Assembly: GCA_039545315.1 (NCBI GenBank)
Contig: BCIM01000003.1
Span: 1,313,637-1,377,636 of the forward strand
Origin: Kondoa malvinella
Lineage: Eukaryota > Basidiomycota > Agaricostilbomycetes > Agaricostilbales > Kondoaceae
Reading direction: 5' to 3'
DNA: 64,000 bases
Shown here: one piece after another, positions 9,653 to 18,838 of the stretch
Layout: each line of letters opens with the position of its first letter
How positions within the stretch are numbered: the stretch's first letter is position 1
The notes under the pieces: model-generated
What the model was told of the DNA's origin: nothing
The model's input: the letters and a program-made list of their open reading frames with translations, nothing else
Database searches by the model: none
Translations under genes and position numbers: made by a program

Positions 9653-10645
9653 ATGTTTTTCAAGAACACTATCCAGCGCGAGCAACAGCTGCAAGCACGC
9701 GAACGTGAAGCGCTGGCGAACGCTCTGGCCGCGATGGCAAGAGGGCCGAACTCTTATGCAAAGCCAGGCTATGCAGGCCCAGCCGACGTATTCCGGCAAC
9801 TCCATGGCCATGATTTCCCTGCCTGTGATGCCGGTCGTGAGACCCATCGCGTCGACCCAACTCCACGCTCCAAGGCCGAATGGCTCGCACTGCAGGTTGA
9901 TACTGAGGCTATCCGAGCTGAACATCAAGTTAAACTCAATGCGCATCCAACTCTCGAGGCAGTCAAGACCGAGTACAAAGGCCGTAAGGACGCCATCCAG
10001 AAGTCCTTGATCAATAAGCCCGTTGAACCAGTGGCTACGGGCTTGAGGAACCGCTGCAGTGACGCCTACAAGCAGCAGAAGGCGGAGTGGCAGGCTGCCG
10101 AAGCTAAATACAAGCTGGATGAAAAGCGGGTAGAGCAGGAATTGCAGGCTCTACACACTTGGCTGATCTCAAAGACTCTGCTGGCTAACGTAAACGCAAC
10201 AACGCGTGAGAAGCTCGAGGATGTGGTGCGGCGAAGTGACCATGATATGGAGCTCATCAACTTCGAGCTCGCGCGACATGCCAAGCTAGAAGAAGTCAAG
10301 CAGAAGGCCGAGTCGGAGCAGCACAGATTGAATCGCGAGGCACTTCTAAAACATAAAGAAGAATTGGAATCTGCTTGGAAGGAGGTTCTCGCGTGCGAAG
10401 AAACAATTCGAAAGGAAAGGAAACGCGAGGTAGAGCAGGGCAAATTGTTCGTTGGTGTAACAAATGCACTGGAGGCCTATATCACTTCCTTGCATGAGCT
10501 GGAAGAGAAGGAACAGGCTGATCACCTTAACCATGTCAAGGAGGAGATCGACGACTACAACAGGTGGATCACGAAGTACCCCAAAGCTGTTCACGAAGGA
10601 GCGAAACCTCTCTCTTTGCATCCACCAGGGAAAGCTTCCGCTTGA
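9653..10645 (+). CDS. coiled-coil protein of unknown function
   Basis: An intronless frame of 330 residues, unusual here because nearly all neighbours are split. Residues 1-30 are amphipathic (QREQQLQAREREALANALAA). Residues 30-110 are mixed. From about 125 to 295 the sequence is almost entirely charged heptads such as YKLDEKRVEQELQAL and EEVKQKAESEQHRLNREALL, predicting long coiled coils. There is no signal peptide, membrane segment or catalytic motif. I do not recognise the family. The lack of introns, the large upstream gap and the TATA box suggest an abundantly or conditionally expressed structural protein, but that is inference. Confidence 0.6.
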   Translation: MFFKNTIQREQQLQAREREALANALAAMARGPNSYAKPGYAGPADVFRQLHGHDFPACDAGRETHRVDPTPRSKAEWLALQVDTEAIRAEHQVKLNAHPTLEAVKTEYKGRKDAIQKSLINKPVEPVATGLRNRCSDAYKQQKAEWQAAEAKYKLDEKRVEQELQALHTWLISKTLLANVNATTREKLEDVVRRSDHDMELINFELARHAKLEEVKQKAESEQHRLNREALLKHKEELESAWKEVLACEETIRKERKREVEQGKLFVGVTNALEAYITSLHELEEKEQADHLNHVKEEIDDYNRWITKYPKAVHEGAKPLSLHPPGKASA

Positions 10646-10847: not shown

Positions 10848-13800
10848 ATGCTGCTGTGGAATATACCTTTGCTGTTGCTGGCCCTCAGCTGGCTGCAGAC
10901 GCCTGTCTTTGCTGTCAAAAAGCACGACTGGAAGACATGTTCTCAAGCAGGCTTTTGTCGCCGCAATAGAGCTCTGGCAGACAGAGCGAGCGAACACAAA
11001 GTATCCTGGACTTCTCCCTATTCGATTCAAGGCACTCCCAGCTTCTCTCAAGGCATCTATCAAGCTACACTCGCGAACGCTCTCTTTCCTGACATCTCAT
11101 TCTCGCTCGAGCTCCGCGTTCAAGAGGACAGCACTGTTCGGATCCTTGTAGATGAAGTCAATGGTCTCCAGCAGCGCTACAACGAAGCTGCCAGCTGGGC
11201 ACTGCTCAAAGAGCCACGTGTTGAAGTGAACGATCAAGCATTCAAAACCGACATCAATGCTCGCAGCTCCAGTATCACGTATGGCAATGGGAGCAATAGA
11301 GTTAGCATTCAGCATTCGCCTATCCTGATCACATTCTATCGCGATGATCAACCTCATGTTGTGTTGAACGAACGCGGACTCTTCAACATGGAACACTTCC
11401 GCAAGAAGACGATCGAAGCGCCAAAGGAGTCAGACAAGCCAGACGAGATCCTCTCGGATACTCAGCCTGATGCACAAACTGTTTTGCAAGATACGAAAGA
11501 TGACAAGTTTGCCTTGTTCCTCGACAAGAGCGAAGATGGTTTATGGGAGGAGACATTCGGTGGCAGGAAGGACACAAAGCCGAAAGGACCCGAGTCTCTC
11601 AGTTTGGACATTACTTTCCCTGGCTATGAGCATGTCTTTGGTATCCCTCAGCATACTGGACCCCTTTCCTTGAAGACTACCAGGTCAGTACCTTTATTCA
11701 ACGACTGCAAAGACTGATGGCCATGCAGAGGCGGAGAACGAGCCTTTGATGATCCTTACCGACTTTGGAATGCCGACGTCTTTGAATACGAGACCGACTC
11801 GCCAATGTCCATCTACGGCTCGATACCATAGTCAGTCATCTAGATGGGTCATACACTGCACACTTAACTCAATGCCGTGATTGAAAGCATGCAAGCACAT
11901 CGAGCAGGTTCAACAGTCGGTGTCTTTTGGCTCAACGCTGCCGAGACCTGGATCGACATTGAGAAATCTAGCACGCCCAAGCCAATCAGTGATTCCTGGC
12001 GAAAGACTCGTAGCAAGACGCTCTCTGACACTGGTCCGACTGACAAGACGACCACGACGCATTGGATGTCAGAAACCGGCATCCTTGATCTCTTTGTATT
12101 CTTGGGTCCAGACCAGGACTCGTTGTACAAGCAGTTCTCGTCCTTGGTTGGGTCAACAGCTATGCCGCAATATTTTGCGATCGGTCACCACCAATGTCGC
12201 TGGAATTACTTGACTGAAGAAGATGTGCTTGAGGTGTCTGCCAAGTTTGACGAGCATGATATGCCGATGGACGTCATGTGGCTCGATATGTGAGCTGCAA
12301 CTGATGTTCACTGTTGTATATGCTCACCTATTCTATAGCGAGTACGCGGAAGAACACAAGGTAAAAGTCCCTATGACTTGACGCGTTCTTTTGCTGATAT
12401 AGCTCGCAGTATTTTATCTGGGACGAAAGCAAGTTTCCAACGCCCGAGAAGATGCAAGAAGCCCTGGTGGCTCGAGGTCGACAGCTAGTAGCCATCATAG
12501 ACCCGCACATCAAACGCACGCCTTCGCTCCATGTCTACAAAGAAGCTCAAGATTTGGGCATTCTATGCAAGACGCCCGATGGTGGAGAATATGAGGGCTG
12601 GTGTTGGACAGGGTCAAGCTCTTGGGTCGATTGGTTCGATCCGAAGAGGTCTGTCAGTTGCGTAAGAGGTTGGGTCTAACTGACTGGCTAATGCTTAGTT
12701 GGGATTGGTGGACTGGCCTGTTCAAGTTTGCTAAGTTCAAGGTATGTGTCTATCATTCATATAAAGGGTAATGCCCACGTCATTGCCAGGGCTCGACTCG
12801 CAACCTTTGGGTGTGGAATGACATGAACGAGGTAGATTCCTCAAGAATTGGCTTGAAGCCTATTGATCGTCTATCAGCCTTCTGTATTCAATGCTCCAGA
12901 GATTACTATGCCGAGGGACAACGTTCACCACGGCGGCTGGGAGCATCGAGATGTCCATAACATGTTTGGCATGCTTTTCGTTTGTCCACTTGTCTGCAAA
13001 CAAATCACAATACTGATCATCTCTATTAAGCACAATGTCACCTCTGAGGCTTTGATACAACGAGAAGCAGAACCTCGAAGGCCATTCGTACTGTCGCGTT
13101 CCTTTTTTGCTGGATCACAGCGCTTTGGCGCGTAAGTTTAGCCTTGGAATCGACTGATATTGAGACTCACTGCATCGTAGTATCTGGACAGGAGACAACG
13201 GAGGAAGCTGGGACCATCTGGCTGTTTCTGTCCCAATGATCTTGGCCAATGGAGTCGGTGGAATGGCATGGAATGGAGGTAAGCATTCTATCAATGCTCT
13301 CGGGCTGCTTTGACGACTCCTCGCAGCCGATGTTGGAGGGTAGATCGTACCTTTTCTGTAAGGCGTTTCGCGTGTTGATGCCTCTGTTCTAGATTCTTTG
13401 GCGACCCATCCCCTGAGATGCTCGTCCGCTGGTATCAAGCTGGTGCTTTTGCTCCATTCTTCAGAGCGCATGCGCATATTGATACAAAACGCCGCGAGCC
13501 TTACCTCTTTGACGAGCCAATTCGGGGTCATCTCCGAGATGCCCTGCGCCTGCGCTATTCTCTTCTGCCTATGTGGTATACCGCCTTCTGGGACGCGCAC
13601 AGAAGCGGTAAACCCATCGCAACGTAGGCTTTTTCTTTGAGGAGTAGAGCAGTGTGATTGAAGTAGCCGAACAGGCCACACTACATCGCTTTCCCGGACG
13701 ACAAGGTTGGTATAGCGATAGATGATCAGTTCTACGTCGGTAGCAACGCTGCGCTCTTAGTCAAGCCAATCACAAAAGAAGGCGCAGCCGATACGACGAT

Positions 13801-16172
13801 TTACTTAGTGGACGAACAACCCTACTATGACTACTTCACGAACGAGGTTCACTTTGGTACTAAAGGTGGATCTACTGTTTCTGTATCGGCACCTTTGGAC
13901 AAGATTCCAGTCTACCAGCGAGGAGGCTCTATAGTGCCTCGAAGAGATATCGTCAGAAGAAGCGCTATACTTGCCTGGCGCGATCCAATCACATTGATTG
14001 CAGCGACGGATGACCATGGCTCAGCTCAAGGCAACCTGTACCTGGACGATGGCGAAACGTACAACTTTGAGCAAGGCGACTTCGTCCACCGTTCATTCAG
14101 CTTGACAACAACCTCGTCTAAGCTGGTGACTCTATCGAACAGTGATTTAATTGCTTCGGAATCATCAGTGGACCTGCAGCAATACTCTGGCAGCAAGAGA
14201 AGCTACTTCAACCAGATCAAGGAGCATCTCGTGACCGATACCATTGTTATACTTGGCCTAGCAAAGAAGCCGTCCTGTGTCAAACCTTCAGCAAGCGCTT
14301 CGGGTCTCGCCTTTGATTGGCAAGATGGTATAGGGGCATCCGCTGGTCGCAAAAAATCAGGCAAGACAGCCAGTCGCCTGAAGATCCAGGGCGCCAACCT
14401 CCCGATCACGCAAGCCTGGAAGCTACTCATACACTTTGACGGTCAGCAATGTCCGCAAAAGAGCTACAACGAACCTGCACTTGCTTTACAAAGTCCTGCC
14501 TGTCCGATTGGTCAATATCGTTGCAAAAATGAGGGACACAAGCCAGCGTGCATCCTCTTCTCGCGCGTTAACGATGGCTTGTGCGATTCAGAATGCTGCG
14601 ATGGTTCTGATGAGTTTGATGGCAAAATTACATGCCCAAACAGATGCAAGGAAGCCGGTCAGGCACATCGCAAGCAAATGGATGAGGAGAATCGCAAGAC
14701 TCGCGTTGGCGCTCAAGTGCGGTCAGAATACATCACCTTCGGCCGCAAAGAGAAGCTGCGACTCGAGGCCAATGTTGACCGACTTCAGGCTGAGCTCATT
14801 GCTTTGGAGGAGAAAGAGCACAAGATGAAGACTGTCCTTGACCAAACAGAAGCTAGAGGGCGCGAAGAGACAGATCGAAAGAAGGCCAGCCTGCCTTATC
14901 GCCGACTTGTCGACCATCAGCAGGCAATCAAGATGCTTCGAGGCCAGCGCGATGATTATGCCACTCGCTTAGACGAGCTTGTAGCGCTACTCAATGATCT
15001 CCGAGCGGACTACAACCCCAATTACCAGGACATGGCAGTGAAAGGTGCCGTCAAAGGCTTCGAAGATTGGCAACGCGCGAACGGCTATGATTTGGCCGAT
15101 GAGGGCGCCGAAATGCAAGAGCTCGTCGAAGAATCAGCTGCTACACCAAGCTCAATGGCTACCTCGCAAGCTGAAGTTGCATACACAGACGATCAATTGA
15201 AGGACTTTGAGAAGGAGGACCCGCTGTCGATTCTCGATGACCTTGCAATAGGTCAAGTCTCCCAAAGCAGTCTGCCGGATGTCACTGAGACTCGTGCGTG
15301 ATCTCTCTGGCGTTACATTACCATCGCTGATGTCGAGACAGTGTTCCGCCTGGAGAATTATGTGCCCGAAGCTTTGAAGCCTAGCTACACGGCTGGCATC
15401 GAAAACTTCCTTTCGGTTCTATCTCGCTTTGGTATCATAAAGGACTCTCAAAGATTCGACGCTTCCTCCTCTGATCGACCTGGTTTGTGGTGTCCTGAAT
15501 TGCAGAGGCTGGAGCTAATCGGTCCAATAGATGTAGTCAAGGCCCGATCGTTACACGGCGATGCTCAAAAAGCAGTGACCGCGTCAAAGAAGCATCTCAA
15601 GGAAGAAAAGGATTCTCTCGCCAAAGACTGGGGTCTGGAATGGGAGTTCAAGAAACTTGAAGGAGTTTGCGTCGACAAGAACACTGGAGAGTAAGCTTGG
15701 AATTTTATGCACTCTGTCTCGGGCTGAATAATGTGTTCCAACAGGTACACCTACGAAATCTGTCTATTCAAAGAAGGCAAACAAAAATCCAACAAAGGGG
15801 CTCAGAGCACATCATTAGGGTGAGCAGATTGTTCACGAGTGATGCCTGTACTGACTATTGATGTACAGCCGCTTTGCGAGCTGGCATCCTACAGCTGAGC
15901 AATCGTCCGATGCTTATTACACAAAACAAGTCTACGACAAAGGACAGCGCTGCTGGAATGGAGTACGTATCATCTTGTTTCTCTGTTACCCACTGGCTGA
16001 TGCACTATGACAGCCTGAGCGTAGCGTCAAGCTGGACATTGTCTGCGGCACCAAGAACGAGCTGCTGTCGGTCATGGAGCCAAACAAGTGCGAATACTTG
16101 TTTAGAATGACATCGCCGGCCGTCTGCAAGGTAGATGTCGAAGATGAGGGAAACGTAAAGGTAGAACTGTAG
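10848..16172 (+). CDS. glucosidase II alpha-beta fusion (GH31 catalytic subunit joined to PRKCSH-type beta subunit)
   Basis: Trims glucose from N-glycans in the ER. Seventeen exons keep frame: 10848-11683, 11729-11830, 11888-12289, 12339-12360, 12410-12648, 12699-12741, 12790-12831, 12878-12979, 13031-13131, 13181-13278, 13327-13339, 13393-13623, 13675-15293, 15342-15690, 15745-15819, 15869-15962, 16014-16172. They encode 1508 residues. The signal peptide (about 1-22) is followed by [17 protein letters not shown], a hallmark of the alpha subunit. The GH31 nucleophile is Asp559 in WNDMNEPSVF and the acid/base is Asp635 in [11 protein letters not shown]. The alpha part ends near residue 1003. 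After about 16 linker residues the beta part begins: an LDLa repeat from Cys1020 ([19 protein letters not shown]), a coiled coil, and an MRH domain from about 1396 ([36 protein letters not shown]). It ends in KVEL, an HDEL-like tail. Fusion and linker sit within exon 13. An in-frame ATG at 10824 is an alternative start. Confidence 0.93.
12339..12360 (+). other. 22-base micro-exon of the glucosidase II fusion gene
   Basis: Encodes the residues after WLDI in the GH31 domain (EYAEEHK). It is flanked by introns 12290-12338 and 12361-12409, both 49 bases with GT..AG ends. Without it the frame breaks and the conserved stretch leading to YFIWDESKF is lost. Confidence 0.75.
13327..13339 (+). other. 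13-base micro-exon of the glucosidase II fusion gene
   Basis: Thirteen bases between introns 13279-13326 and 13340-13392 supply the conserved ADVGG of the GH31 motif 'GMAWNGADVGGFFG'. Phase 1 before and phase 2 after agree with the neighbouring exons. Confidence 0.8.
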
Positions 16173-16509
16173 CGCTAGCATGCTCATGATGCATTGTGCA
16201 AACCTCGTCAAAGCAGATATCATGATCACATTCCGTAGACAGATTAATATGGCCGCTATGGCATCAGGAGCCCTTGCATACTGGTGTCCACGCAGAATTG
16301 AGAGAGCGACTCGTTCTGACAGGGTTGCATGTGATATCGGCTCGTGACGAGATGCCTGCATCTTGCTTGCTCAAACTCGAGGTAACACTTATTGGAAGAC
16401 CGTAGCAACTTCCATAGAGCAGAAGCAAAGCACAGCGCAGAATTTGCTCGGCAATCTCCTTTACCGACTTGGAAAGTTGTCATCGATAGCCTGTCATTTC
16501 AAGGCAGCC

Positions 16510-18838
16510 ATGGCCTTTGCATCGCTGGTGAATGGCGCAGATTGTGGTCCAGTGAATCCATTGGCGTCCTTGAAAAACGCATATGGACAAGACCGCGGGC
16601 TGCAGCAGGATCGTTTCTTGCCTGTCGCTGGACCTTCTTCGCAAAGCTTTCGCGGCCAGAACAAGCAATATCCAGTCTTGGATCATGAGACTGCTCAATT
16701 CTACGAGAACAGAGGTGCTGGACCTGCGTTCGACATGGCTCCTTTGGATCGAGCGCTCTCTCCAAATCAGAAAGCTGTGCCAAGTTGGGTAGTCGATTTC
16801 GCTGCTTCTCAAGCTCCGCAAGCCAATTCAAGCAATGTACCAGCATGGGCAAAAGACTTTAAGCGGGATCAGCGGGCTTCCTCACCTAGAAGTCAGCCGC
16901 AAGCCTATTCCGCGTCACCAGCTGCTCAGCGATATGCAGCTCCTCCAATGTTTCAGATGCAGCAGATGCCTTTCAATGATTGGAGTATGGAAGCTGAGAG
17001 GCAGAGGATAGAACAGCGGGCAGCTCAAGAGAGTTCGCAGCTGGATGCGGCATTCCATCGAGCTCATCAAGGTATGTCTGTTCCTGCTGACTTATCGGCA
17101 TCCATGCTCACGCTCTTGAGCGTAGCATCACAATGGGAGAAAGCCTTTGACGGCAGATCCAGCGACTCTCGACTGCAAGACCGCTCTGCTTCACCTCCCC
17201 TTGTCCAGAACCAGAGATCAGCAGCTACAGATGATGCTCTAGTACAAACTGCTGGAGATTTGCTCGAATCAATATCTTCCGATCAGAACCCTAAATTCAA
17301 ACAATCCGGTTTCATGAACCTCATGCGACAGCTTCGGGATCGAGAAGTCGCTGTTGAAGGCAATTCCGTCGTCGAGGCTGATGGTCAAGGAACGCCCTAT
17401 CAGTCTACCTCGAGATTGGACAAGGGCAAAGGAAGAGCATACCAACATGTCGCCGAACCATTGAACCAGAATCAAGATGCTGCTTATGAAGAACGGTTCG
17501 CACAAGAGACGATGCATGGGTACGATGTCATGCGCGATGTATGGGATGAAGAGGATACTGTCCGGGAAGCTAGGGAGAGACAACCGCAGAGGCAATTCCA
17601 GGGTGATGGAGGTGCTATAACGGATGATATGGATGAAGAAATGGTTGACGAACGCTTCGACAATCAGAACATCATCAACCAGCCTTCAGCTTTCCGCCAA
17701 GCATCTTCGCAAGTCGATCATTCGGATTGGCATCACCTGCAGCGCGAATGGGATGCTTTCGAAGCCACAGCTACTGGTGTTCGGCCGCTGCATACAACAA
17801 ATCAACATGCGCTGCATAGAGAATACATGTCTGAAGCAGCACAAGCAGCCATGTCTCGCACTATAGCTCAACTGGAAGCGGAAACCCAACAGAATCCGCA
17901 AGATTCTTCTTCCTGGCTTGCTTTGGGTATCAAACAGCAAGAGAATGAAAGAGAAGAACAAGCTATCAAAGCGCTGCAACAAGCATTAGCGTTGGATCCT
18001 GAACTCTCGGATGCATGGTTGGCTATCGCTGTTAGCTATACCAATGAGAATGTTCGGTCTTTAGCATACGATGCTATAGAAAGATGGATCGATAGTCGGA
18101 AGGAATACGCCGAGACTGTGCGCCAGTACAAGATGTTACAAGGAGAACAGATGGACGATGCATCTTCGGCAGATCGACATGCGTATTTGACTGGCATGCT
18201 TATTACTATGGCGACTGCTTCACCTGATGTACAAGAGATGGGCGGAGAAGCAATAGATGCAGATATTCAAGTAGCGCTTGGTGTGCTGTTCAACTCGAGT
18301 GAAGAGTTTGACAAGGCTGTGGATTGTCTCGGAGCTGCTTTAGCTGTTCGACCAGATGTGAGTCTGTGCGTAGCGTATTGTGAACAAACCCTAATGGTTG
18401 AGTAGGACCCGATGCTCTACAATCGCCTTGGCGCCACGCATGCAAACAGCGGTCGAGCAGAACAAGCGATGCAGTACTACTTCCGCGCACTTGAACTCCA
18501 GCCAGCTTATGCAAGAGCTCGGTACAACTTGGCAGTGGCTTCCATCAGCCTAGGCAATCATCAAGAAGCAGCTGAATATCTCCTGACTGCTTTGGCGCAG
18601 CAAGAGAGCGAGTACCAAGGCTCGGATAGAGATGTTGGAGCCATGCAAGATGATCGTGCTGGTGTATCTAGTGAGTCTTCCTCGTTCAAATGGGTATTCG
18701 TACTGATGCGCTCGAGTAGATGCGCTGTGGGAGACATTGGGCAATTGCTGCTCTATACTTGGACACCCTTCGCTCGTCGGCGCGTGCAATAGTCGCAACC
18801 TCGCTGCCTTTGTAGATAGCGGCATCTTTGCATTCTGA
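16510..18838 (+). CDS. PEX5: peroxisomal targeting signal receptor PEX5
   Basis: Binds PTS1 cargo in the cytosol and carries it to the peroxisome membrane. Four exons (16510-17071, 17126-18357, 18406-18670, 18720-18838) give 725 residues. The N-terminus MAFASLVNGADCGPVNPL carries the conserved cysteine that is monoubiquitinated for recycling, followed by LQQDRF. Several W-x-x-x-F/Y-type PEX14-binding motifs follow (SWVVDF, AWAKDF, QWEKAF, EWDAF). The C-terminal half holds TPR repeats, e.g. SSWLALGIKQQENEREEQA, AWLAIAVSYTNE, LYNRLGATHANSGRAEQAM and ARYNLAVASISLGNHQEA, and the ending NSRNLAAFVDSGIFAF. The first intron (17072-17125, 54 bases) has no stop and is a multiple of three. The start is the ATG at the conserved cysteine block; an upstream frame from 16363 has no family similarity. 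Confidence 0.93.

What the first reader, a model, noticed from the sequence alone, without database searches (positions are those of the whole stretch)
10848..16172. Glucosidase II alpha and beta subunits fused into one 1508-residue protein
In animals, plants and fungi that I know of, glucosidase II is a dimer of a GH31 catalytic subunit and a separate LDLa/MRH regulatory subunit. Here one frame runs from the alpha signal peptide through both GH31 catalytic aspartates into the LDLa, coiled coil and MRH lectin domain. The transition lies in the middle of a 1619-base exon without any stop, intron or start in between, and 17 exons all keep phase. A fused enzyme would fix the stoichiometry at 1:1 and tether the lectin to the active site. 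I do not know of a described case.
Basis: partly seen in the sequence, partly recalled or inferred. Interest (0 to 1): 0.93.

Follow-up and report, generated by a model that had tools for sequence, protein, structure and literature searches.

The report
Single-chain ER glucosidase II in fungi
In this fungus the two normally separate subunits of an enzyme that takes part in checking protein folding are encoded as one long protein, and many members of the rust and red-yeast branch of fungi carry the same fused gene, which gives a natural test of what the second subunit does.

Summary
One gene (17 exons, 10848-16172, +) encodes 1508 aa: signal peptide, complete GH31 glucosidase II alpha, a 22-aa linker, then beta (LDLa, coiled coil, MRH lectin, C-terminal KVEL). 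The junction lies inside one 1619-base exon. It is not an assembly error: 36 of 46 hits to the beta part among long proteins are the same fusion; the 34 named ones are all Pucciniomycotina (rusts, anther smuts, red yeasts, Mixia, Atractiella). None of the named free betas in the best 120 of 506 hits is from this subphylum, and no second beta was found in this genome. A beta-part tree puts the 23 fused rows used in one clade (99/96). Best reading: an obligate single-chain glucosidase II. Ten paper searches showed no description. No RNA or protein evidence was available.

The parts
10848..16172 (+). whole fused glucosidase II alpha-beta gene, 17 exons, 1508 aa
10848..10913 (+). N-terminal signal peptide-like segment (residues 1-22; the cleavage point is my estimate)
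   Evidence: (hydropathy maximum of the N-terminus)
11106..11957 (+). GH31 N-terminal galactose-mutarotase-like domain (residues 87-336)
12156..13585 (+). GH31 catalytic TIM barrel (residues 403-731)
12820..12822 (+). catalytic nucleophile D559 (human D542 equivalent; the role is recalled)
13194..13196 (+). catalytic acid/base D635 (human D618 equivalent; the role is recalled)
13607..14434 (+). alpha C-terminal domains, ending at residue 997, which aligns with residue 944 of human alpha, the last one modelled there
13675..15293 (+). exon 13, 1619 nt, carries the alpha-beta junction in one open frame
13949..13960 (+). I836, V837, R838, R839 = human R815, V816, R817, R818 at the alpha/beta interface; R815 replaced, R817 and R818 kept (equivalence read from the RVRR motif of the mouse chain)
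14435..14500 (+). 22-residue linker (998-1019) in place of the alpha stop, beta signal peptide and LDLa-1; holds conserved Cys1003 (14450-14452)
14501..14647 (+). the single retained LDLa module (equivalent of LDLa-2; residues 1020-1068) with its Ca2+ ligands
14648..15007 (+). coiled coil (residues 1069-1188; model helices 323-404 and 406-444)
15662..16133 (+). MRH lectin domain (residues 1391-1496) with Q1413, W1454, R1459, E1478, Y1484
16158..16169 (+). C-terminal KVEL, ER-retention-like

Best explanation
The gene encodes a genuine single-chain ER glucosidase II. One translation and one signal peptide bring both halves into the ER. The GH31 half trims the two alpha-1,3-linked glucoses of N-glycans. 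The retained LDLa docks on the distal C-terminal domain of the same chain, next to R838/R839, as LDLa-2 does in the animal dimer. The coiled coil carries the MRH lectin, which holds mannose branches of the same or a neighbouring glycan near the active site, and the C-terminal KVEL returns the whole chain to the ER. Covalent joining took over the holding role of LDLa-1, which was then lost together with its alpha-side partner R815. Shown: the reading frame, domain order, residue conservation, one clade of fused proteins among the rows sampled, no second beta found in this assembly. Inferred: that the chain stays whole, the docking, the order of losses, and all activity.
For: Frame and domains. 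This genome: one PF13015 locus and one PF12999 locus, both this gene; the other two GH31 loci match it only in single pieces of 40% and 37% identity. 36 of 46 hits fused, 34 of 34 named ones Pucciniomycotina (lineages of 12 names checked, the rest recalled or stated in the record's name). Beta-part tree: the 23 fused rows used form one side of a branch, 99/96; alpha-part tree: 17 fused rows plus P0169 against 10 free alphas, 100/100. One LDLa motif in 42 of 42 fused rows, two in 111 of 117 free betas; one linker Cys in 42 of 42; R815 equivalent R in 1 of 42 fused versus 81 of 82 free alphas (one gap); R817 and R818 equivalents R in 42 of 42, read against the human interface. Five MRH residues each present in 35 of 36 fused and 117 of 117 free rows. 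ER-retention-like C-terminus in 34 of 36 full-length fused rows; 0 of 82 free alphas end in [DE][DE]L. AlphaFold2 pLDDT 82-92 in the ten-residue blocks from model residue 251 to 320, the junction and LDLa. The glucose-dependent folding cycle is present: matches to the families of UGGT, calnexin/calreticulin, ALG6/ALG8 (two loci), glucosidase I and ALG10.
Against: No RNA, proteomic or biochemical data. The R815 contrast rests on one evolutionary event; the free alphas come from the best 120 hits only (the named ones Agaricomycetes, by recall), and the glucosidase II alpha of 5dkx (Chaetomium, recalled), solved with a separate beta in 5jqp, has I there. The other LDLa-1 partner on alpha (human R929, placed by counting from a conserved Trp and a recalled human end) is K in 27 of 41 fused rows and K or R in 76 of 82 free ones, a partial difference only. 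P0169 (Puccinia triticina, 998 aa) is alpha-only but annotated partial. The LDLa pattern was loosened after a first, stricter one gave 40 of 42 fused rows with one motif and 85 of 117 free betas with two. The model covers one exon, without the barrel, with pTM 0.59.
Confidence: 0.85

Rival explanations
1. The fusion is translated as one chain but cut in the linker in the ER, giving an ordinary alpha-beta dimer with 1:1 stoichiometry.
For: The linker varies much in sequence apart from its Cys and the end before the LDLa; no protein data exist.
Against: Linker length is nearly constant (Cys 17-20 residues before the LDLa Cys in 42 of 42) with a conserved Cys, the junction is predicted ordered, and LDLa-1, present in at least 111 of 117 free betas, is absent from all 42 fused rows. 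If the linker Cys is disulfide-bonded across the linker, a cut there would still leave the halves joined (inference).
Confidence: 0.1
2. Annotation or assembly merged two neighbouring genes.
For: Merged models seem to occur in this database: 10 of the 46 hits are long proteins with beta domains but no GH31, some with unrelated domains, and the Mixia row has an extra PF00010 domain.
Against: One exon with no stop or intron across the junction; no Met or hydrophobic signal for a separate beta; the same junction in 41 other rows, with a shared, derived linker and no LDLa-1.
Confidence: 0.03
3. The protein has drifted to another function and no longer acts as glucosidase II.
For: LDLa-1 and R815 are lost.
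Against: Both catalytic aspartates, the MRH sugar-binding residues and the LDLa Ca2+ ligands are kept; it is the only candidate glucosidase II found in a genome with matches to the rest of the cycle.
Confidence: 0.02

Closest known systems
Heterodimeric ER glucosidase II (GANAB/PRKCSH in animals; GH31 alpha with Gtb1-type beta in fungi)
   Same: same domains in the same order within each half, catalytic D542/D618 equivalents, LDLa-2, coiled coil, MRH, ER-retention-like end
   Different: one chain instead of two; beta signal peptide and LDLa-1 gone; R815 equivalent gone; a Cys-bearing linker in place
Deposited Pucciniomycotina proteins named glucosidase II, Glucosidase 2 subunit beta, or GH31 family protein (for example P0001, P0003, P0012, P0022)
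   Same: the same fusion; the 34 named rows are 1437-1564 aa long apart from the 2122-aa Mixia row
   Different: their names, as far as the listing shows them, do not mention a fusion
OS-9/Yos9-like MRH lectin of the same genome (C2, L011)
   Same: MRH (PF07915) match, and a frame nearby on the same strand that ends in RDEL
   Different: separate locus; only PF07915 matched the 154-aa piece scanned; the OS-9 name is my reading

Membership tests
ER glucosidase II, alpha (GH31) | GH31 domains with nucleophile and acid/base aspartates | tested here: met
ER glucosidase II, alpha (GH31) | closest solved structures are glucosidase II alpha | tested here: met
ER glucosidase II, beta | two LDLa modules at the N-terminus | tested here: not met
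   one motif here and in 42 of 42 fused rows; the homologue of LDLa-2 is kept
ER glucosidase II, beta | MRH lectin residues | tested here: met
   Q, W, R, E, Y present in this protein; each in 35 of 36 fused rows
ER glucosidase II, beta | C-terminal ER retention signal | tested here: met
   KVEL here, KDEL-like in 34 of 36 including this one; that KVEL works is not tested
ER glucosidase II holoenzyme | two separate chains, non-covalent dimer | tested here: not met
   single reading frame, no separate beta gene found; that the chain is not cut afterwards is not tested
ER glucosidase II holoenzyme | alpha-1,3-glucosidase activity on Glc1-2Man9 glycans | not testable with these tools
   needs an enzyme assay

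The most novel reading that the evidence does not exclude
A whole fungal subphylum replaced the usual two-subunit glucosidase II by an obligate single-chain enzyme in one event, with co-loss of a docking module and its arginine partner. The lectin then never leaves the catalytic half, so subunit dissociation or exchange cannot be part of how the timing of the two glucose cuts is set in these fungi.
Probability: 0.6. Interest if true: 0.72.

Novelty: new variant of a known kind. Interest (0 to 1): 0.62.

Why it matters
How the beta subunit helps alpha (ER retention, stability, or presenting the glycan for the second cut) is hard to separate in a dimer. A natural fusion, present in rusts, anther smuts and red yeasts, lets these roles be tested directly and offers a single-gene source of full glucosidase II for structure and inhibitor work. 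It is also a candidate molecular marker of Pucciniomycotina, and it shows that naming by one half hides half of the enzyme.

Tried and rejected
Separate beta gene elsewhere in the genome: not found with PF13015 or PF12999 (the search goes exon by exon and the completeness of the assembly is not given); the one PF07915 match listed (C2) lies in an OS-9-like gene. Separate alpha: the other two GH31 loci are distant. Fusions outside Pucciniomycotina: none among the 46 hits, but only the 7990 candidates sharing most five-letter words were scored, so distant fusions could be missed, and only 4 of the 10 classes that NCBI lists are represented by name. Loss of the whole alpha-side LDLa-1 surface: not clear; the R929 equivalent is K in 27 of 41 fused rows. 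Six of 117 free betas show one LDLa motif; from the printed starts, three have an altered first motif, two seem to keep it (so the second escaped the pattern) and P0092 is cut short at the front. Eight fused rows with odd or missing residues at catalytic or lectin positions (P0008, P0013, P0024, P0027, P0030, P0033, P0035, P0036) are probably gene-model errors; I did not check this and left them as they are in all counts. Three fragments (P0047, P0048, P0078) do not reach the catalytic sites. In the alpha tree the label free/fused needs two changes because P0169 was entered as free. The interface text of Caputo et al. 2016 was not held, so I used PMC9713302 (passages only). The fold search says nothing on the LDLa part: only model residues 1-254 were widely covered. 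Ten paper searches, seen as search listings, showed no description of the fusion; a survey of fungal gene fusions that I recall (Leonard and Richards 2012) was not read. The species of the window was not identified.
Full report
What is there. Seventeen exons from 10848 to 16172, all GT..AG, introns 45-57 bases, give 1508 aa. Pfam places the GH31 parts, then the glucosidase II beta parts, in one protein. Alpha is complete: in the model of exon 13, residues 1-253 span human alpha 715-944, and 944 is the last residue modelled there. Model residue 253 is residue 997 of the fusion. The retained LDLa begins with Cys1020. The 22 residues between are the linker.

Is it an artefact? The junction exon is open for 539 codons, chance about 9e-12, with no Met between residues 727 and 1079 and no hydrophobic stretch at the junction. 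A beta-part search among long proteins gave 46 hits; 36 hold GH31 and PRKCSH domains together. 34 of these are named and all are Pucciniomycotina; two (P0025, P0039) are unnamed. I checked the lineage of 12 names; the rest (for example Puccinia) are recalled or state their class in the record. P0047, an unnamed metagenome protein, is 94% identical over 56% of the beta query, 93% to the exon 13 product, and runs across the junction.

Is there another beta? The window genome (19.1 Mb, 20 contigs, completeness not given) has one PF13015 and one PF12999 match, both in this gene. The one PF07915 match listed is an OS-9-like gene on C2. Two further GH31 loci are remote. In the wide database, the best 120 of 506 beta hits are 3 fragments of fusions and 117 free betas, none with a Pucciniomycotina name; some are unnamed. 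The best 120 of 3009 alpha hits are 38 rows of Pucciniomycotina type (P0025 unnamed), 37 of them fused and one alpha-only row annotated partial (P0169), and 82 free alphas.

Origin. On the beta part, 23 fused rows (of 42 held) and 21 free rows (24 chosen, three dropped because a pattern failed) fall on two sides of a branch with support 99/96. On the alpha part, 17 fused rows and P0169 stand against 10 free alphas, 100/100. One fusion, before the split of Microbotryomycetes, Pucciniomycetes, Mixiomycetes and Atractiellomycetes, explains this. Six of the ten classes that NCBI lists are not represented by name.

What changed at the joint. All 42 fused rows have one LDLa motif; 111 of 117 free betas have two (with a pattern loosened after the stricter one, which gave 40 of 42 and 85 of 117). 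All 42 fused rows have one Cys 17-20 residues before the first Cys of the LDLa. In free betas that LDLa-side Cys closes the first module (recalled); I suggest that the linker Cys is its substitute partner. In human glucosidase II, alpha R815, R818 and R929 form salt bridges with beta D54, D94 and D53, and R817 bonds N93 (PMC9713302, passages; giving D53-D57 to LDLa-1 and N93/D94 to LDLa-2 is my reading of the Ca2+ ligands listed there). At the R815 position the fused rows have L 33, I 5, T 2, M 1, R 1; the 82 free alphas R 81 and one gap; P0169 has L. R817 and R818 are R in 42 of 42 fused rows. So the contact to the lost module went and the contact to the kept one stayed. Against: the alpha of 5dkx, solved elsewhere with a separate beta, has I there; R929 shows only a partial difference (K in 27 of 41 fused rows; K or R in 76 of 82 free ones); and it is one event.

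What is kept. D559 and D635 match the catalytic aspartates: D in 34 and 39 of 42 fused rows; the others are fragments or have gaps or altered letters around the site. In 36 full-length fused rows each of five MRH residues is present in 35, the misses falling in P0024, P0033 and P0035; in 117 of 117 free betas all are present. Trp409 is named in PMC6272264 (passages); the other MRH residue numbers are recalled. The LDLa Ca2+ ligands D94, D104 and E105 are kept in 36 of 36, D98 is D in 27 and E in 9. 34 of 36 end in a KDEL-like tetrapeptide, this one in KVEL, which also ends one free beta; the Mixia and Austropuccinia rows do not. Families of UGGT, calnexin/calreticulin, ALG6/ALG8 (two loci), glucosidase I and ALG10 have matches in the genome (PF18404 and PF03200 also ring in some bacterial controls), so the substrate of glucosidase II should be made here.

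Structure. AlphaFold2 on the exon 13 product with 40 sequences gave mean pLDDT 79.5 and pTM 0.59; the ten-residue blocks from model residue 251 to 320 score 82-92, so the joint and the LDLa are predicted ordered, not floppy. Coordinates were not given to me, so docking itself is inferred.

Mechanism. Reviews say that beta carries the KDEL retrieval signal and that its sugar binding matters for efficient trimming (PMC6331979 and PMC6272264, passages). The fusion supplies both permanently in one chain. I hold a single, uncut chain most likely (0.85). Novelty: the domains are known; the one-chain design is not described in any listing of the ten paper searches (numbers under Tried and rejected), though the sequences lie in public databases.

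Noticed in passing
16348-18405: ORF downstream on the same strand with TPR repeats (Pfam TPR_1 over its cut-off), PEX5-like by eye.
   Followed up: partly
9671-10642: Upstream ORF of 324 aa rich in charged residues, no Pfam match at E 0.01.
   Followed up: partly
L011 (C2:1481524-1481847 of the genome): Separate MRH protein locus with a frame ending in RDEL nearby, OS-9/Yos9-like by my reading.
   Followed up: partly
P0034, P0037, P0043: Betas of other fungi that the database shows with extra domains (PF00400, PF08613, PF00175 and others); probably annotation merges.
   Followed up: no
P0012, stretch around GYQQSRWQYW: The Rhodotorula toruloides fusion departs from the usual barrel motif (ITLDVDFTPDKRYF instead of WLDIEYAEEHKYF); not explained.
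   Followed up: no
whole window: ARAGORN, run with bacterial settings, finds no tRNA gene in 64 kb.
   Followed up: no
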